NCBI RefSeq assembly: GCF_014202945.1
Contig: NZ_JACHHW010000005.1
Location: 62,001 to 126,000, forward strand
Source of the DNA: Zhongshania antarctica
GTDB taxonomy: Bacteria; Pseudomonadota; Gammaproteobacteria; Pseudomonadales; Spongiibacteraceae
DNA: 64,000 nucleotides
Direction of reading: 5' to 3'
Shown here: positions 4,386 to 62,490 of the stretch, in pieces
Layout of the letters: every line of letters begins with the position of its first letter
Position numbering within the stretch: the stretch's first letter is position 1
Notes under the pieces: model-generated
Told to the model about the DNA's origin: nothing
Seen by the model: the letters and a program-made list of their open reading frames with translations, nothing else
Database searches by the model: none
Position numbers and translations under genes: made by a program

Positions 4386-4611
4386 GCGTTACGGGAGACG
4401 GGAGACGCTTAAAATCAAAAGCCCGCACTGGCGTCGCTTTTGCGTTTACCGGACCCTAGCACCGGTTTGTACCGGCTTACATGGATACCTGCCTGCGCAG
4501 GTATGACTTCATAGCAATAGATATTTTTAATATCGTCGCCCCTGCGCAGGCAGGGGCCCATCTCAGCAACGGAGTACACGCCAGCACTGCGCTTACCATC
4601 TCTCATCAAGC
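4386..4611. repeat. Family A inverted repeat enclosing one family B (REPIN-like) unit
   Basis: The left end (4386-4408) carries two GGGAGACG-type heptamers; a degraded inverted copy ends at 4611 (CATCTCTCATCAAGC). Between them sits one family B unit: a palindrome at 4481-4507 (TACCTGC / GCAGGTA arms) and a facing palindrome at 4535-4561 (GCCCCTGC / GCAGGGGC arms). It fills the space between the convergent ntrC and trmL genes and has no coding content. Short frames through it translate to PAQAGIH-like strings, a known artefact of such repeats. Confidence 0.75.
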
Positions 4612-22733: not shown

Positions 22734-22764
22734 CAATACGCTGGACGGAAGACGCTAAGTCAAA

Positions 22765-22804
22765 AGCGCTAAAGATCAACCTTAAAACGTTTTTCTTTAG
22801 CGCT
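22765..22804. terminator. Hairpin between convergent phosphoesterase and di-haem genes
   Basis: AGCGCTAAAG (22765-22774) and CTTTAGCGCT (22795-22804) form a perfect 10-bp stem with a 20-base loop that holds a T run. A family A repeat fragment (GCTGGACGGAAGACGC) lies just before it at 22740-22755. Likely a terminator region for one or both genes. Confidence 0.5.
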
Positions 22805-22845
22805 CCTCAGTTAGACAAGTGCATTGCGCCTGCCGTCACTCGTCT

Positions 22846-33245: not shown

Positions 33246-33300
33246 GCCGGACGGGAGACGGGAGATGCAAAAGCACAGCGTCTTACGTCTCCCGTCCAGC
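33246..33300. repeat. Empty family A inverted repeat between pgk and fba
   Basis: Left arm GCCGGACGGGAGACG (33246-33260) and right arm, the inverse of GCTGGACGGGAGACG (33286-33300), match at 14 of 15 positions around a 25-base centre. It is the same end sequence as the ends of the four-helix-bundle cassette at 40515-40968, here with no cargo. It lies inside a transcribed operon gap. Confidence 0.75.
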
Positions 33301-39295: not shown

Positions 39296-40504
39296 ATGTC
39301 TGAATACAGTATTTTCACCTCGGAGTCGGTGTCTGAAGGACATCCCGATAAAATGGCCGACCAGATTTCTGACGCCGTACTCGACGCGATTATCGCCCGC
39401 GACAAACACGCCCGCGTTGCCGTAGAAACACTGGTTAAAACCGGCATGGCGATTGTTGCCGGTGAAGTCACGACCTCGTGCTACGTCGACCTAGAAGACA
39501 TTATTCGCGACGTGATCACTGGCATTGGCTACAACAGCTCAGACGTTGGTTTTGACGGCGCCAGCTGCGCGGTATTAAACGCCATCGGCAAGCAGTCAGT
39601 TGACATCAACCAAGGTGTCGACCGCGCCCGCCCAGAAGATCAAGGCGCTGGCGACCAAGGCTTAATGTTCGGCTACGCCACCAATGAAACCCCGTCGCTG
39701 ATGCCTGCGCCGCTGTTTTACTCTCACCGTTTGGTAGAGCGTCAGGCTTACTTGCGCAAAAACGGCGTGTTGTCTTGGTTACGCCCAGACGCTAAAAGTC
39801 AGGTTACTCTGCGCTATGAAAATGGCCTACCTGTCGCGGTAGATGCCGTTGTACTGTCTACTCAGCACAACCCTGAGATCTCGCAAAAAGACCTGCAAGA
39901 AGCGGTGCGTGAAGAAATCATTAAAAATGTCATTCCAGCCGAATTACTTCACGCTGGCACCCAATACCACATTAACCCAACGGGCAAATTCGTCATTGGC
40001 GGCCCCGTTGGTGACTGCGGCCTGACTGGCCGTAAAATCATCGTAGACACCTACGGCGGCATGGCGCGTCACGGTGGCGGCGCGTTCTCAGGCAAAGACC
40101 CCTCAAAGGTTGACCGCAGCGCGGCGTATGCAGGCCGTTATGTTGCTAAGAATATTGTTGCCGCAGGTCTTGCCGACCGCTGCGAAATTCAAGTGAGCTA
40201 CGCCATTGGCGTTGCCGAGCCCACCTCAATTTCCATCAACACCTTTGGCACCGGCAAAGTCAGCGACGCCAAATTGGTAGCCGCGGTGCGCGAAGTATTC
40301 GACCTGCGCCCCTACGGCATCACCAAAATGCTGGACCTGGCTCACCCCATGTACCAACCCACTGCCGCCTACGGCCACTTCGGCCGCGACCCTTATGAGC
40401 TGACCTATAACTTTAAAGAAAATGGCGAGCAGAAATCTGAGACTGCGACCGCGTTTAGCTGGGAGAAGACGGATCGGGCTGAAGCCTTGAAAGCAGCTTT
40501 ATAG
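39296..40504 (+). CDS. metK: S-adenosylmethionine synthase
   Basis: Makes S-adenosylmethionine from methionine and ATP. 402 residues. Motifs are [20 protein letters not shown], the [15 protein letters not shown] motif, [20 protein letters not shown] and the P-loop-like [25 protein letters not shown] stands upstream as ribosome binding site. It belongs to the sahR-metK-sahH-metF methyl cycle; an inserted cassette with a four-helix-bundle gene now separates it from sahH. Confidence 0.98.
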
Positions 40505-40514
40505 CGCGGGAGAG

Positions 40515-40968
40515 GCTGGACGGGAGACGGTATACGCAAAAGCCTAAACCCCGCTCAAAACTATTTGGAGGGTTGCCATGGAGCGGCGACATATACGAAT
40601 GGATGTTTGGCAGGACGCTGTCGCACTGGTTCATCATGTTTATGAATTCAGTGCAGCGTTTCCGCAAGATGAACGATTCGGGCTTATCAGCCAGATGCGA
40701 CGCTCGGCCATTAGTGTTCCGAGCAATATCGCAGAAGGCGCCGCCCGAGGATCAGATAAAGATTTTTTGCGTTTTTTATATATTGCGAGAGGTTCTCTAG
40801 CAGAACTAGAAACTCAAATAATTATAGCCACACAATTAGGCTATATAAACGAGCAAGAAAATTGGCAACCAGCGCTTGAACGCGTTTTCGCGAAACTGGC
40901 TGCATTAATTAACCGACTTCGGGCGAGTACCGAGTGAGCGCATTTGCGTCTCCCGTCTCCCGTCCAGC
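40515..40968. mobile_element. Family A cassette with 26-bp terminal inverted repeats carrying a four-helix-bundle gene
   Basis: The left end (40515-40540) begins GCTGGACGGGAGACGG, and the right end (40943-40968) is its inverse; 24 of 26 positions match, the two differences being TATACG versus GAGACG. The 454-bp unit contains one complete gene (40578-40937) and nothing else. The same ends occur elsewhere in the window around other contents or empty. No target duplication is clear and no transposase is encoded, so movement would need help in trans. Status as a mobile unit is an inference. Confidence 0.6.
40578..40937 (+). CDS. Four-helix-bundle protein (S23/IVP, Avd-like family)
   Basis: 119 residues, all helical. 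The family pattern is clear: RMDVWQDAVALVHHVYEFSAAFPQDERFGLISQMRRSAISVPSNIAEGAARGSDKDFLRFLYIARGSLAELETQIIIA. Family members were first found inside 23S rRNA intervening sequences, and one branch (Avd) is the pentameric partner of reverse transcriptase in diversity-generating retroelements. No reverse transcriptase or variable repeat is present here, so the role is unknown. It lies between metK and sahH, enclosed by family A inverted repeats. Confidence 0.88.
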   Translation: MERRHIRMDVWQDAVALVHHVYEFSAAFPQDERFGLISQMRRSAISVPSNIAEGAARGSDKDFLRFLYIARGSLAELETQIIIATQLGYINEQENWQPALERVFAKLAALINRLRASTE

Positions 40969-40992
40969 ATTTAGCTTATAGAGGTATACACC

Positions 40993-42369
40993 ATGAGCAA
41001 CACCTTCACCGACTACAAAGTCGCCGACATCTCCCTTGCCGCTTGGGGCCGTAAAGAACTGAGCATCGCCGAGGGCGAAATGCCTGCACTCATGGCCATG
41101 CGCTCTAAATACGGCGCTGACAAGCCTCTGGCTGGCGCCAAGATTTTGGGCTGTATTCACATGACAATTCAAACTGGGGTTTTGATTGAAACCTTAATTG
41201 AACTCGGCGCCGAAGTGCGTTGGTCGTCGTGCAATATTTTCTCTACTCAAGATCACGCCGCTGCTGCCATTGCCGCTGCTGGAATTCCGGTATTTGCTTG
41301 GAAGGGCGAAACTGAAGAAGAGTATGAGTGGTGCCTTGAGCAAACCATTTTAAAAGATGGCCAGCCTTGGGAAGCCAATATGGTGCTGGACGACGGCGGT
41401 GACTTAACCGGCCTGCTTCACCAGAAATACCCACAGATGATGGATCGTATTCACGGCATCACAGAAGAGACCACCACGGGTGTTCACCGCCTGCAAGAGA
41501 TGATGGCCAAAGGCGAACTAAAAGTACCCGCCATCAACGTTAACGATTCTGTAACCAAGTCAAAGAACGACAACAAATACGGCTGCCGTCACAGCCTAAA
41601 CGACGCGATCAAGCGCGGCACCGATCACCTGCTGTCTGGTAAGAAAGCACTGGTTATTGGCTACGGCGATGTGGGCAAAGGCTCTGCAGCATCATTACGC
41701 CAAGAAGGCATGATTGTAAAAATCAGCGAAATCGATCCTATCTGCGCGATGCAGGCCTGCATGGACGGCTACGAAGTGGTTTCGCCTTACAACAATGGCA
41801 TAAACGATGGCAGCGAAAACTGCGTTAACACCTTAGTGCTGGGCAATACCGACCTGCTGGTTACCACTACTGGCAACGTCAATGTGTGCGACTCCAATAT
41901 GCTTAAAGCCCTGAAGAACGGCTGCGTAGTCTGCAACATCGGTCACTTCGACAATGAGATCGACACTGCCTTTATGCGTAAGAACTGGGAGTGGGAAGAA
42001 GTTAAACCACAGGTACACTTGGTTTACCGCAACAAGGCTGCTAACGACCATTTAATTCTGCTGTCAGAAGGTCGCTTGGTTAACCTTGGCAACGCAACGG
42101 GTCACCCCAGCCGTATCATGGATGGCTCATTTGCCAACCAAGTGCTCGCGCAGATTCACCTGTATGCGCTGCGTTTCGCCGACTTAGCACCAGAGCAAAA
42201 AGCCGCTGCGATTACCGTAGAAGTGCTACCCAAGAAGTTGGACGAAGAAGTTGCCGCCCACATGGTTGCTGGCTTCGGTGGCGTACTGACTCAGCTCAGC
42301 AAGACCCAAGCAGACTATATCGGCGTGCCAGTTGAAGGACCGTTTAAGCCTGAGAGTTATAAATACTAA
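40993..42369 (+). CDS. ahcY: Adenosylhomocysteinase
   Basis: Splits S-adenosylhomocysteine into adenosine and homocysteine using bound NAD, relieving product inhibition of methyltransferases. 458 residues. N-terminal [41 protein letters not shown], the NAD fold [29 protein letters not shown], and the C-terminal SYKY-type end (ESYKY) are typical. Preceded by TAGAGG. The family A cassette ends 24 bases upstream, so the cassette or metK promoter may drive it. Confidence 0.98.
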
Positions 42370-42380
42370 GAACGAAAGAC

Positions 42381-42435
42381 GCTTTACGGGAGACGGTATA
42401 CGCAAAATTTTAGCGTCTCCCATCTCCCGTCTAGC
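42381..42435. repeat. Short empty family A inverted repeat between ahcY and metF
   Basis: The left arm (42381-42403, ACGGGAGACGGTATACGC) faces the right arm (42413-42435, GCGTCTCCCATCTCCCGTC). About 18 of 23 positions match, with a 9-base AAAATTTTA centre. The left arm carries the same TATACGC variant as the left end of the four-helix-bundle cassette 1.9 kb away, which suggests a common source. Confidence 0.7.
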
Positions 42436-43349: not shown

Positions 43350-43517
43350 GCTGGACGGGAGATGGGAGATGCAAGGGCATTCGCTACGCTCATATGGATA
43401 CCTGCCTACGCAGGTATGACGCTGTTGATTTCGTCACTCCTGCGAAGGCAGGGGTCCATCCCCGCAACGGAGTGGGTAGCGAACTTTGCATCTCCCATCT
43501 CCCATCTCCCGTCAAGC
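43350..43517. repeat. Family A inverted repeat enclosing a family B (REPIN-like) unit after metF
   Basis: The left arm starts GCTGGACGGGAGATGGGAGA (43350-43374). The right arm (about 43486-43517) is its inverse with one extra heptamer (CATCTCC three times). Inside are facing palindromes at 43394-43420 (TACCTGC / GCAGGTA) and about 43433-43459 (ACTCCTGC / GCAGGGGT, with a T-G wobble). It separates the convergent metF and mgtC genes. Confidence 0.75.
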
Positions 43518-46074: not shown

Positions 46075-46735
46075 AGATAGACTCCTGCCTTCGCAGGAGT
46101 GACAAAAGTAATACTCTGCCGCGCTTAAATGGATAGCGGTCTGCGCAGGTATGACCCAAGTAAATTACACTGCCGTGCAGACCCCGCTCCCACAAAAACT
46201 CCCGCGTCGCCCCTGCGGAGGCACGGGCCCATCCCAGCGGCGAAGTCGGCATCACTCTGCACTTAAGACAAACTAATACACCAAGACAGACCACTACACG
46301 GCCCACCCCATTAGACATTCCGCAAAAGCAATACGCTGCCACGCGTAAACAGATAGCGGTCTGCGCAGGTATGACCCAAGTAAATTACACTGCAGTGCCG
46401 ATCACGCTCCCACAAAGACTCAGGCGTCGCCCCTGCGGAGGCAGGGGCCCATCCCAGCAACGAAGTCGGTATCACTCTGCACTTAAAACAAACCAATACA
46501 TCAAGGCCGACCACTAAACGGCCCACCCTATTAGACATTCCGCAAAAGCAATACTCTGCCACGCTTAAAAGGATAGCGGTCTGCGCAGGTATGACCCAAA
46601 TAAATTACACTGCCGTGCAGAGCCCGCTCCCACAAAAACTCCCGCGTCGCCCCTGCGGAGGCAAGGGCCCATCCCAGCAACGAAGTCGGTATTGCTCTGC
46701 ACTTTAGACACGCTAATAGACCAAGGCTGCTCTTG
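46075..46735. repeat. Family B unit followed by three tandem copies of a 220-bp repeat
   Basis: A first palindrome (ACTCCTGC / GCAGGAGT, about 46079-46102) precedes three head-to-tail copies beginning at 46111, 46331 and 46551, exactly 220 bp apart. Each carries a degraded GGTCTGCGCAGGTATGAC half, a GTCGCCCCTGCGGAGGC half and a common 90-bp spacer (AATTACACTGC ... CTCCCACAAA). Frames through it are repeat artefacts. It fills the 45995-46762 gap. Confidence 0.85.
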
Positions 46736-54709: not shown

Positions 54710-54798
54710 ATACGCCCTCTTTTATTCTTTGATAACTGCAATTTAGTTGAGAAACGACCAAAGCGTCAGACGACACACGTCTGGCGCAAGACGCAAAT

Positions 54799-55835
54799 GC
54801 ATTCGCTGCGCTCACGTGGATACCTGCCTACGCAGGTATGACCTCGTTCTGGCTGATGCTTGCCCCTGCCATCGTAAGTATGACGCTGAGGTATCCCCCT
54901 AGCGGATACCGTATCGCTCACGCGACGTTCTAGCGTCGCCCCTGCGGAGGCAGGGGCCCATCTCAGCAACGAAGTATTAAAATTAGCGCTGCTTGCAAAG
55001 GCATTCGCTGCTCACGTGGATACCTGCCTGCGCAGGTATGACCTCGTTCCGGCTGATGCTTGCCCCTACCATCGCAAGTATGACGCTGAGGCATCCCCCT
55101 AGCGGATACCGTATCGCTTACGCGACGTTCTAACGTCGCCCCTGCGGAGGCAGGGGCCCATCTCAGCAACGAAGTATTAAAATTAACGCTGCCCACAAAT
55201 GCATTCGCTACGCTCTCATAGATACCTGCCTGCGCAGGTATGACCTCGTTCCGGCTGATGCTTGCCCCTACCATCGCAAGTATGACGCTGAGGTATCCCC
55301 TATCGCTCACGCGACGTTCGAGCGTCGCCCATGCGAAGGCAGGGGCCCATCTCAGCAACGTAGTATTAAAATTAGCGCTGCTAACAAAAGCATTCGCTAC
55401 GCTCTCATGGATACCTGCCTGCGCAGGTATGACCTCGTTCTGGCTGATGCTTGCCCCCTACCATCGCAAGTATGACGCTGAGGCATCCCCTATCGCTCAC
55501 GCGACGTTCGAGCGTCGCCCCTGCGAAGGCAGGGGCCCATCTCAGCAACGTAGTATTAAAATTAGCGCTGCTAACAAAAGCATTCGCTACGCTCTCATGG
55601 ATACCTGCCTGCGCAGGTATGACCTCGTTCTGGCTGATGCTTGCCCCTACCATCGCAAGTATGACGCTGAGGTATCCCCTAGCGGATACCGTATCGCTAA
55701 CGCGAAGTTCGAGCGTCGCCCCTGCGGAGGCAGGGGCCCATCTCAGCAACGAAGTATTAAATTTAGCGCTGCCTGCAAAGGCATTCGCTGCGCTCAGGTG
55801 GACACCTGCCTGCGCAGGTATGACCTTGTTCTGCG
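54799..55835. repeat. Tandem array of five family B units plus a partial sixth
   Basis: Units begin GCATTCGCT at 54799, 55001, 55201, 55390, 55580 and 55781, giving periods of 202, 200, 189, 190 and 201 bp; the shorter ones lack an AGCGGATACC-type insert. Each has a palindrome with TACCTGC / GCAGGTA arms and a facing one with GCCCCTGC / GCAGGGGC arms, joined by a conserved 90-100 bp spacer (CTCGTTC ... GCTGATGCTTGCCCC). Family A-like ends (GGCGCAAGACGC and its inverse TGCGTCTTGC) flank the array. Confidence 0.9.
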
Positions 55836-58003: not shown

Positions 58004-58885
58004 GCATTCGCTAACGCTCACATGGATCCCTGCCTACGCAGGGATGACGCGAAGGTATGAGACCAAAATAATCGTCCGGCAACGGTACGACGAAATACCA
58101 AAATCCTAAAAATTCGTCGCTACTGCAAAAGCCTGGCAGCAAATACACAAGTGAAATTGAGCGTCACTCCTGCGCAGGCAGGAGTCCATCTCAGCAACGA
58201 AGTGCAAAATTCCCCCTTAAAGCATTCGCTCCGCTAACATGGATACCTGCCCCTGCCTACGCATGGATGACACTCATATTAAAATCGTCACTCCTGCGAA
58301 GGCAGGGGGTCCATCTCAGCAACGAAGTACGGGTTTCACGCGGCCACCGCTAAGCATTCACTGCGTTCATATGGTTCTGCCTACGCAGGGATAACGCTCG
58401 TATTAAAATACGTCGCCCCTGCGAAGGCAGGGGGTCCATCTCGGCTACGAAGTACGGATTTCACACGACCACCACTATGCATTCACTGCGCTCATATGGC
58501 TCCATCCCTGCGCAGGGGTGACGCTCGTATTAAAATACGTCGCCCCTGCGAAGGCAGGGGCCCATCTTAGCTACGAAGTACGGATTTCACGCGGCCACCG
58601 CTAAGCATTCACTGCGTTCATATGGTTCCCTGCCTACGCAGGGATGACGCTCATATTAAAATGCGTCACTCCTGCGAAGGGATAACGCTCGCATTAAAAT
58701 CGTCACTCCTGCGCAGGCAGGAGTCCATCTCAGCAACGAAGTACGGATTTCACACGACCACCACTATGCATTCACTACGTTCATATGGTTCTGCCTACGC
58801 AGGGATAACGCTCGTATTAAAATGCGTCACTCCTGCGAAGCCGGACTCTGCCCCTGCGAAGGCAGGGGCCCATTTCAGCAACGGA
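58004..58885. repeat. Array of family B units with periods of about 125-220 bp
   Basis: Unit starts (GCATTC[A/G]CT) at 58004, 58222, 58354, 58479, 58605 and 58768. Three consecutive units are 125-132 bp long and lack the long spacer. Palindrome arms vary between TCCCTGC/GCAGGGA, ACTCCTGC/GCAGGAGT and GCCCCTGC/GCAGGGGC. Some palindromes are half-deleted (GGTTCTGCCTACGCAGG). No gene in 57981-58929. Confidence 0.85.
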
Positions 58886-61797: not shown

Positions 61798-62490
61798 CAT
61801 TCACTGCGCTCATATGGATCCCTGCCTCCGCAGGGATGACAACAATTAATCATTCGCCAACCCTACGAGGGTATGACGACAAATACGGTAAATTTAATTA
61901 CTCGTCACTCCTGCGGAGCCGGACTCTGCACCTGCGAAGGCAGGGGGTCCATCTCCGCAACGAAGTACGAATTTCACGCGACCACCACGAAGCATTCGCT
62001 GCGCTCATATGGATATCTGCCTGCGCAGGGATGACTTAATGCGGCACATGGGTATGACTACAAATTAAGCATTCCCCACTTCTGCGCAGGCAGGACAACA
62101 AATACGGTAAATTTAATTACTCGTCACTCCTGCGCAGGCAGGAGTCCATCTCAGCCACGAAGTGCGGAATTCACGCTGCCACCACAAAGCATTCACTGCG
62201 CTCATATGGATCCCTGCCTCCGCAGGGATGACTTAATGCGGCACAGGGGTATGACTACAAATTAAGCATTCCCCACTTCTGCGCAGGCAGGACAACAAAT
62301 ACGGTAAATTTAATTACTCGTCACTCCTGCGCAGGCAGGAGTCTATTGCTGCAACGGAGTGCGAATTTCACGCAGCCACCGCGAAGCATTCGCTGCGCTC
62401 ATATGGATCCCTGCCTGCGCAGGGATGACAGCAAATAGGTACAAACCGGTCACATGGATACCTGCCCCTGCCTACGCAGGTATAACACCG
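61798..62490. repeat. Tandem array of family B units, period 194-197 bp
   Basis: Four units start at 61798, 61992, 62189 and 62386; the shared spacer contains AATACGGTAAATTTAATTACTCGTC. Palindrome arms are mostly TCCCTGC / GCAGGGA in the plus orientation and ACTCCTGC / GCAGGAGT in the facing copy. A final half (TACCTGCCCCTGCCTACGCAGGTA area) lies near 62455-62480. No gene in 61787-62505. Confidence 0.85.

What the first reader, a model, noticed from the sequence alone, without database searches (positions are those of the whole stretch)
40515..40968. Four-helix-bundle gene packaged between 26-bp inverted repeats inside the methyl-cycle block
Seen: a complete S23/Avd-like gene is the only content of a 454-bp unit whose ends match at 24 of 26 positions as an inverted repeat. 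It stands between metK and ahcY, genes that are adjacent or close in many relatives. Known: the family occurs in 23S rRNA intervening sequences and as Avd in diversity-generating retroelements. Inferred: the protein may travel as cargo of, or help move, a non-autonomous inverted-repeat element.
Basis: partly seen in the sequence, partly recalled or inferred. Interest (0 to 1): 0.75.

Follow-up and report, generated by a model that had tools for sequence, protein, structure and literature searches.

The report
S23 gene framed by heptamer arrays
A small four-helix-bundle protein gene of unknown function sits between facing tandem arrays of a 7-base DNA repeat, and the same arrangement with other repeat sequences surrounds most of the related genes examined, so this orphan protein family may be the missing partner of a puzzling class of genomic repeats.

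Summary
In detail: a complete S23 (PF05635) gene lies between 24/26-bp inverted ends, in the metK-ahcY gap. The ends are short facing arrays of a 7-bp unit (GACGGGA type). The end has 66 places in the genome; 38 form 19 facing pairs, none in the opposite order, and the longest pair is the S23 unit.

The pattern is wider than this genome. After thinning two surveys to 120 S23 loci below 65% identity, 91 have a period-7 or -8 array in their flanks, and lag 7, 8 or 14 is best in 110; cold-shock genes gave 0 of 30 at lag 7. Unit sequences differ between lineages, the two sides are reverse complements, and the unit tracks the protein (Mantel, 0 of 999 permutations).

In this genus the 10 S23-bearing and 8 S23-less genomes separate by repeat count, and all 8 have an empty metK-ahcY gap.

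Best reading: S23 is the trans-acting partner of a repeat family, working like REPIN-RAYT without a Y1 transposase. Movement is not shown: in 24.5 kb, two sister genomes differ in these repeats only by a swapped S23 unit. My ten paper searches found no S23-heptamer link beyond one Coxiella element.

The parts
40515..40968 (+). Whole S23 unit: left heptamer array, S23 gene, right heptamer array
   Evidence: gap empty in 8 of 18 genus genomes
40515..40543 (+). Left array / inverted-repeat arm (GCTGGAC-GGGAGAC-GGTATAC-GCAAAAG)
40940..40968 (-). Right array / inverted-repeat arm, near reverse complement of the left
40578..40937 (+). S23 / four helix bundle gene (PF05635, TIGR02436), 119 aa, GGAGGG upstream of ATG; dN/dS 0.008-0.083 in 13 of 15 pairs of close relatives (dS saturated in the other 2)
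42381..42435 (+). 55-bp facing-array element without a gene, between ahcY and metF; RNA hairpin z -5.7
43350..43517 (+). Facing-array element after metF; also in G010, not seen after metF in G015, G008 or G016 (alignments with these break near there)
33246..33300 (+). 55-bp facing-array element without a gene; also in G010, G008, G016; RNA hairpin z -9.5
22740..22844 (+). Possible decayed facing pair (left end clear, right end weak)
4390..4408 (+). Single array copy, no partner found
39296..42369 (+). Slot: metK ... ahcY, occupied by different S23 units or empty in relatives

Best explanation
S23 (23S_rRNA_IVP / four helix bundle) genes form a two-part system with their flanking DNA: a small Avd-fold protein and a cognate 7- or 8-bp unit, repeated in tandem (commonly 4 to 5 times) on each side in facing orientation. 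SHOWN: in most loci examined the gene is closely enclosed by facing arrays; in the window the arrays pair as one hairpin when folded; unit sequence and orientation go with protein sequence; facing copies without the gene are dispersed in genomes of this genus and of several other lineages; in this genus their number goes with the presence of the gene; the gene-bearing unit is present, absent or of another type at one slot. INFERRED: the protein, probably a ring of five, binds the tandem units (perhaps one unit per subunit, in single-stranded or extruded hairpin form), pairs the two facing arrays, and lets host replication, repair or RNA-processing enzymes copy or maintain the unit. The gene-bearing copy would be the master and the short hairpins its non-autonomous offspring, as with RAYTs and REPINs. 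The catalytic step and any actual movement are not shown.
For: Period 7 in S23 flanks: score >=12 in 55 of 79 loci against 0 of 30 for cold-shock genes of the same genomes. In 80 named loci the best lag (of 4-14) was 7 in 52, 14 in 16, 8 in 11, 9 in 1. Both sets thinned to 120 loci below 65% identity: lag 7 or 8 >=12 in 91, best lag 7, 8 or 14 in 110. Same-contig control ORFs reach 12 at lag 7 or 8 in 28 of 164 against 47 of 57 S23 loci, Fisher 7.7e-19. 12 plasmid S23 loci that I fetched, of 28 matching records: lag 7 is best upstream in 12, downstream in 7. Upstream flank against reverse complement of own downstream flank: local score >=18 in 100 of 159, direct orientation 22 of 159, other loci's partners 5 of 475. 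Among 136 loci below 65% identity, protein similarity goes with same-orientation unit similarity (Mantel rho 0.132, 0 of 999 permutations as high; flipped rho -0.063); the nearest protein neighbour shares the unit in 33 of 136 against 7.6 expected. Genus: GACGGGAGACGG matches 23-128 in 10 S23+ genomes, 1-13 in 8 S23-; GTC-type matches 46-195 in 9 of 10 S23+ (0 in G001), 0-2 in 8 S23-; the tree needs at least 4 changes of S23 status. TAGGCAG x3 in 398 genomes: 10 of 62 S23+ against 6 of 336 S23-. Distant arrays prefer their own S23 flank: 36 of 113 in the top 5% against 5.65 expected. No Y1 transposase found in the genome. Units of two types in the same slot in sisters G000 and G010. Purifying selection on S23.
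Against: No movement was observed; over 24.5 kb at 92.5% identity G000 and G010 differ in no array copy outside the S23 slot. In random samples of 800 kb from each of two sets of ten genomes, lag-7 segments (score >=11) number 10 in S23+ and 2 in S23- genomes, and 6 of the 10 come from one genome, so wide dispersal is not general. The partnership is not one-to-one in the window's own genome: its only S23 has GACGGGA ends, yet it has 179 GTC-type matches; I explain this by loss of a second S23 (G002 contig C49 has remnants of both types), which is inference. 77 of 113 distant arrays did not rank the S23 flank of their locus in the top 5%. In one search the reversed control word itself has 20-74 matches per genome, and in G004 (23 against 26) and G001 (48 against 65) the real word is not above it, so that split rests on the comparison between genomes; the control is 0-6, except 27 in G014. 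Matches overlap, so counts are not numbers of arrays. 24 of 79 loci fell below the lag-7 threshold, among them three own-genus loci (L034-L036) with short arrays. 6 S23-less genomes have TAGGCAG arrays. No catalytic motif is known to me in S23. The protein-unit correlation is small in size (rho 0.13).
Confidence: 0.57

Rival explanations
1. RNA element, like the 23S rRNA intervening sequences: the facing arrays are made to pair as RNA, S23 binds or protects that RNA, RNase III may cut the stem, and spread (if any) goes through RNA.
For: The Coxiella IVS has heptameric direct repeats upstream of its S23 ORF and a terminal-inverted-repeat stem cut by RNase III in vitro (PMC4990558, passages). 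Window units fold strongly as RNA (z -5.7, -9.5, -5.7). Strand polarity: upstream strand has G>C in 135 of 164. The model resembles Avd, part of the DGR ribonucleoprotein.
Against: 0 of 20 S23 loci scanned show an rRNA family within about 1.5 kb. Reverse transcriptase does not track S23: none detected in S23+ G000, G017, G008, G014, and present in 5 of 8 S23- genomes. Polarity is also expected for an ssDNA element.
Confidence: 0.2
2. Regulator: S23 is a TRAP-like or nucleoid-type binder of tandem units; its own flanks are autoregulatory sites and the dispersed facing arrays are its regulon or terminators. Arrays spread by ordinary processes.
For: Arrays lie close to the S23 start (median 18 nt) and stop (median 8 nt); copies without the gene form terminator-like hairpins between genes; protein and unit covary.
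Against: The ahcY-metF gap carries arrays of three different types in the ten S23+ genus genomes, and by eye none in 7 of the 8 S23- ones, which fits repeat turnover better than a conserved regulon.
Confidence: 0.15
3. Passenger: an ordinary inverted-repeat element or MITE, moved by another transposase, happened to pick up an S23 gene.
For: 454-bp unit with inverted ends and many relatives without the gene.
Against: Facing 7/8-mer arrays of unrelated sequence around S23 in many lineages; unit covaries with protein; purifying selection on the gene. Transposases other than Y1 were not searched.
Confidence: 0.06
4. Replication slippage: heptamers are a polymerase-slippage by-product with no link to S23.
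For: A slippage hypothesis for the heptamer excess in bacteria is cited in PMC4692102 (passages).
Against: Slippage predicts neither inverted symmetry, nor association with one gene family, nor covariation with its protein.
Confidence: 0.02

Closest known systems
REPIN / RAYT (REP-associated tyrosine transposase) systems
   Same: Inverted repeat doublets forming hairpins, many copies, a gene linked to specific repeat types (PMC3116915, outline and abstract).
   Different: No Y1 transposase match in this genome; the partner is an Avd-fold protein with no catalytic motif known to me; the repeat is a 7/8-bp tandem, not a palindromic REP.
23S rRNA intervening sequences (IVS) encoding S23, e.g. Coxiella
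   Same: S23 ORF inside inverted repeats; the Coxiella IVS has heptameric repeats by the ORF and is called a selfish element (PMC4990558, start of abstract and passages).
   Different: Here between protein genes, with copies lacking the gene elsewhere; 0 of 20 scanned loci in rRNA.
Avd of diversity-generating retroelements
   Same: Fold: model to 4dwl chains C, D, E at TM 0.79-0.82 (query-normalised; Foldseek E 0.03-0.23). Homology of PF05635 and Avd is noted in PMC10053308 (passages).
   Different: NCBIfam DivGenRetAVD far below its cut-off (19.1 against 80 bits); no reverse transcriptase match in the genome.
Bacterial heptanucleotide repeats: GGGAATC of Xanthomonas, GGGGA(T/C)T of Nostoc, TAACTGA of Beggiatoaceae, GGGACCG of Geobacter metallireducens
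   Same: Period 7, largely intergenic, some inverted. X. vasicola S23 flanks contain ATCGGGA, a rotation of GGGAATC.
   Different: Those papers name no S23 partner in the passages I saw; here such arrays are tied to S23.
CGTC-tagged REPs
   Same: Dispersed palindromes, mostly as facing dimers, said to lack a dedicated transposase (PMC3733652, passages incl. part of the abstract).
   Different: 8-9 bp stems with a CGTC tag; a link to S23 was not tested.

Membership tests
S23 / 23S_rRNA_IVP (PF05635, TIGR02436) | Profile match over curated cut-off | tested here: met
   124.4 bits against 33.8; 123 against 24
S23 / 23S_rRNA_IVP (PF05635, TIGR02436) | Four-helix-bundle fold | tested here: met
   Model pLDDT 94.4, all-helical; best PDB match 2gsc, TM 0.93, 51% identity
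REPIN-RAYT | Y1 tyrosine transposase gene linked to the repeats | tested here: not met
   0 matches to PF01797 in the genome; the same search finds it in 5 of 14 control genomes
REPIN-RAYT | Facing pairs dispersed in the genome | tested here: met
   19 +/- pairs, 0 -/+
23S rRNA IVS | Located in an rRNA gene | tested here: not met
   Window unit lies between metK and ahcY; 0 of 20 other S23 loci show an rRNA family
23S rRNA IVS | RNase III excision from the transcript | not testable with these tools
   needs RNA work
Diversity-generating retroelement | Reverse transcriptase with template and variable repeat | tested here: not met
   No PF00078 match in G000; template and variable repeats were not sought
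Classical TIR transposon / MITE | Target-site duplication and a matching transposase | tested here: inconclusive
   Empty sites exist but flanks are too diverged to read a duplication; transposases other than Y1 were not searched

The most novel reading that the evidence does not exclude
Prokaryotic heptamer/octamer repeat arrays as a class are the footprint of one protein family: S23/Avd-fold rings, each reading its own 7- or 8-base unit, that maintain and spread facing tandem arrays without any known transposase or reverse transcriptase. This would be a new kind of self-propagating genomic repeat with a co-evolving protein-repeat code.
Probability: 0.4. Interest if true: 0.95.

Novelty: categorically new. 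Interest (0 to 1): 0.84.

Why it matters
Two old puzzles may be one. S23 is a common four-helix protein with solved structures (2gsc, 2rld) and no known function, named after its location in some rRNA genes. Heptamer repeats were reported as over-represented in many bacterial genomes, without a settled cause as of 2015 (PMC4692102, passages). A partnership between them would give a testable function to a whole family, a cause for a class of repeats, and possibly a protein-repeat recognition code that can be read from natural pairs in genomes.

Tried and rejected
RAYT partner: no Y1 match in the genome. Reverse-transcriptase partner: RT presence does not follow S23. 23S rRNA context: none of 20 loci. 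Phage vehicle: no match in the phage collection at E 1e-5; plasmids: 28 records, among them 11 Nostoc and 4 Calothrix. Strict one-gene-one-repeat within the genus: not met, GAC and GTC repeats occur together in 9 of 10 S23+ genomes. Strong general dispersal: weak in random samples. Target-site duplication: not readable from the diverged empty sites. Literature: ten paper searches, most of them read as listings, gave no paper on S23 with heptamer arrays beyond the Coxiella IVS; two searches were swamped by unrelated uses of the terms, and subscription papers are not in the library. PMC10910872 lists 23S rRNA IVP in the key to a figure on CRISPR adaptation associations (legend), with no heptamers in the passages seen. 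PMC11270868: one passage, IVP in rRNA insertions of CPR bacteria.

Rows dropped or doubtful: from the S23 survey I left out duplicates (L031, L069), pieces or contig-end stretches (L047, L088, L114, L115, L116) and matches not fetched. Some kept loci are cut by a contig end, so that their flank windows are misplaced (three under 3 kb, L085 among them, are left out). Searches use only loci with an array score of at least 10 and a protein of at least 90 aa, identical proteins once (164 of 208). One search uses 151 of 159 survey rows before thinning, with shorter flanks. One search used the 57 of 80 named loci with at least 12 kb held. In one search, two of the distant arrays in L204 are flanks of another S23 gene nearby. 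The 12 plasmid loci were picked by me from 25 listed rows; L409, L410 and L412 look like one conjugation-type locus. S23- status rests for G055, G083, G148, G152 and G368 and, by absence from its match list, for G056; on the single-sequence search for G003, G005, G007 and G011. I take the 398 genomes to be the same draw because the handles agree. That S23 and Avd form pentamers is recalled (the entries 2gsc and 2rld have five chains each).

Full report
OBSERVATION. The 454-bp unit 40515-40968 is real. It stands between metK and ahcY, followed by metF (named from sequence).

THE ENDS ARE HEPTAMER ARRAYS. Read closely, the ends are tandem units of 7 bp (GACGGGA-GACGGGA-GACG...). The genome (3.85 Mb, 26 contigs) has 66 places for the 16-base end at up to two mismatches against 6 for the reversed control. 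Neighbouring places under 500 bp apart are 19 in facing (+/-) order, none in the opposite order, none +/+ and 4 -/-; the facing units are 55 to 454 bp long and the longest is the S23 unit; 28 of 66 places are unpaired at this stringency. Inside the window there are facing units at 33246-33300, 42381-42435 and 43350-43517. At threshold 11 the window has 4 period-7 segments, all of this family, and one each at lags 9, 12 and 14. The units fold as hairpins (z -5.7, -9.5 and, for the whole S23 unit, -5.7). One S23 gene was found in the genome and no Y1/RAYT transposase.

THE PATTERN IS FAMILY-WIDE. I took S23 genes found by protein or profile similarity, without regard to repeats. In 79 loci of the window's own phylum (relatives and a draw of 398 genomes; more loci fetched) the best period-7 segment in the 300-bp flanks scores at least 12 in 55, against 5 at period 8 and at most 1 at periods 4-6 and 9-13 (period 14, the harmonic, 46). 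In 30 cold-shock genes, one from each of 30 of the same genomes, the count at period 7 is 0. In 80 named loci found with an S23 alignment (titles include Bacteroidota, Acidobacteria, Planctomycetes, Chloroflexi, Gemmatimonadota, Clostridia, candidate phyla and Methanophagales archaea) the best lag among 4-14 is 7 in 52, 14 in 16, 8 in 11 and 9 in 1. Both sets together, thinned to 120 loci below 65% protein identity and with shorter flanks: period 7 or 8 reaches 12 in 91; the best lag is 7, 8 or 14 in 110, 6 in 4, 9 in 4 and 12 in 2; no named and unnamed protein are 90% identical. Control ORFs on the same contigs reach 12 at lag 7 or 8 in 28 of 164, S23 loci in 47 of 57. In cyanobacterial plasmids, 12 loci fetched of 28 matching records, lag 7 is the best upstream lag in 12 and the best downstream lag in 7, also where S23 lies between cas6 and cas4 or between ribonucleotide reductase genes. 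The two sides of a locus are reverse complements: local score at least 18 in 100 of 159, direct orientation 22 of 159, swapped partners 5 of 475. Arrays most often have 4 to 4.5 units (52 of 226 period-7 arrays; median 4.7, and 5.25 for period 8) and lie close to the gene (median 18 nt before the start, 8 nt after the stop).

THE UNIT SEQUENCE GOES WITH THE PROTEIN. Units differ greatly (GACGGGA, GTCGGRT, TAGGCAG, CGGGATT, GAGTGAG, AGTTAAA, octamers and so on). Genomes with several S23 genes show different units at different copies; within-genome pairs share a similar unit in 7% of 99. Between genomes, the share of pairs with similar units rises from 1.6% below 20% protein identity to 12.8% at 50-55%, about 35% at 55-70% and 71% at 70-85%, while the same arrays in flipped orientation stay at 0-7.5%. 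After thinning to 136 loci below 65% identity the Mantel rho is 0.132 with 0 of 999 permutations as high, and -0.063 for flipped arrays; the nearest protein neighbour shares the unit in 33 of 136 against 7.6 expected. The effect is small in size but directional. The upstream strand has more G than C in 135 of 164.

COPIES WITHOUT THE GENE. In 948 kb lying more than 1.5 kb from the S23 genes of the named loci there are 94 arrays at lag 7 and 19 at lag 8, against 4, 1, 2, 9 and 2 at lags 4, 5, 10, 11 and 13 (lags 6, 9 and 12, multiples of the codon: 23, 16, 20; lag 14: 55); 36 of 113 rank the S23 flank of their own locus in the top 5% of 80, with 5.65 expected; 77 do not. TAGGCAG three times over, searched in 398 genomes, occurs in 16: 10 of 62 with S23 and 6 of 336 without; the five highest counts (15 to 64) are in genomes with an S23 of that unit. 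In random stretches of 800 kb from ten S23+ and 800 kb from ten S23- genomes, lag-7 segments at threshold 11 number 10 and 2, at 13 they number 4 and 0, and 6 of the 10 are in G010. So dispersal is strong in some lineages and slight in others.

THE GENUS. Ten of 18 genus genomes have S23, in each case between metK and ahcY; the other eight have that gap empty (49-67 bp to the ahcY match). Matches to GACGGGAGACGG are 23-128 with S23 and 1-13 without. The reversed control word has 20-74 matches per genome in both groups and exceeds the real word in G004 and G001, so the contrast is between genomes rather than against that control. GTC-type matches are 46-195 in nine S23+ genomes, 0 in G001, and 0-2 without S23, with control 0-6 except 27 in G014. 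The tree needs at least four changes of S23 status, so this is not one clade against another, though 18 genomes are few. Two S23 lineages, about half identical, use the slot: sisters G000 and G010 (92.5% identical over 24.5 kb) carry the GAC and the GTC type there and differ in no other array copy in that stretch. G002 has remnants of both types side by side. The ahcY-metF gap carries a facing array in the ten S23+ genomes, of GAC, GTC or TAGACGC type; among the eight S23- genomes I see by eye only a decayed GTC-like trace in G007. In a syntenic block, units at some sites are present in one species and not in others, and the S23- genome G005 shows three single matches and no facing pair.

MECHANISM. 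Best reading: S23 and its unit are partners; the gene-bearing unit is the master and the facing pairs without a gene depend on it. The protein model matches 2gsc (Xanthomonas XCC0516; five chains in the entry) at TM 0.93 and Avd of diversity-generating retroelements at about 0.8. That S23 and Avd form rings of five is recalled. A ring reading tandem units, one per subunit, would suit arrays of 4 to 5 units; this is a guess to test. The catalytic step is unknown and movement has not been seen. A role for RNA, as in the ribosomal intervening sequences, is the main rival; the Coxiella element already shows heptamers beside an S23 ORF (PMC4990558). A reverse transcriptase does not follow S23 in the genus.

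NOVELTY. Heptamer repeats are described in Xanthomonas, Nostoc, Beggiatoaceae and Geobacter, with slippage or regulation proposed and no S23 partner in the passages I saw. X. vasicola S23 flanks carry the published Xanthomonas unit in rotation. REPIN-RAYT is the nearest working analogy but its defining enzyme was not found; the rRNA and retroelement classes fail on location and on reverse transcriptase. I therefore rate it as outside the known kinds, with the caution that the ribosomal S23 element is a near neighbour and that only open-licence papers could be searched.

Noticed in passing
window 46103-46725, 54794-55833, 58252-58840, 61931-62429: Tandem arrays with periods of about 126-220 bp built round palindromes such as CCTGCCTGCGCAGG; a second, unrelated interspersed repeat family, partly shared with G010.
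   Followed up: no
L233 (G002 contig C49), metK-ahcY gap: Remnants of a GTC-type and a GAC-type S23 unit side by side in one slot, suggesting tandem occupancy followed by loss.
   Followed up: partly
L402, L404 (cyanobacterial plasmids): S23 with different heptamer arrays sits in the same place, between cas6 and cas4, in two CRISPR loci (cas1d of type I-D annotated in L404); this may bear on the IVP entry in a CRISPR adaptation figure.
   Followed up: partly
L111, L273, L282: Proteins with a KSFAFALRIVK-like start, which I take for bAvd-like, also carry 7-mer arrays, so the rule may reach beyond S23 proper.
   Followed up: no
L039 (G076, another family): S23 with an in-frame TAG at the same metK-ahcY slot, with GAGAACG-type arrays.
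   Followed up: no
G000 C6:47746-48442 (L026-L028, L004): Cluster of four array copies about 200 bp apart, interleaved with the other palindromic repeat.
   Followed up: no
G001, L237 and its ahcY-metF gap: TAGACGC repeated about 8 and 14 times at two neighbouring sites while GTC-type matches are absent from the genome: looks like drift of the unit across sites.
   Followed up: no
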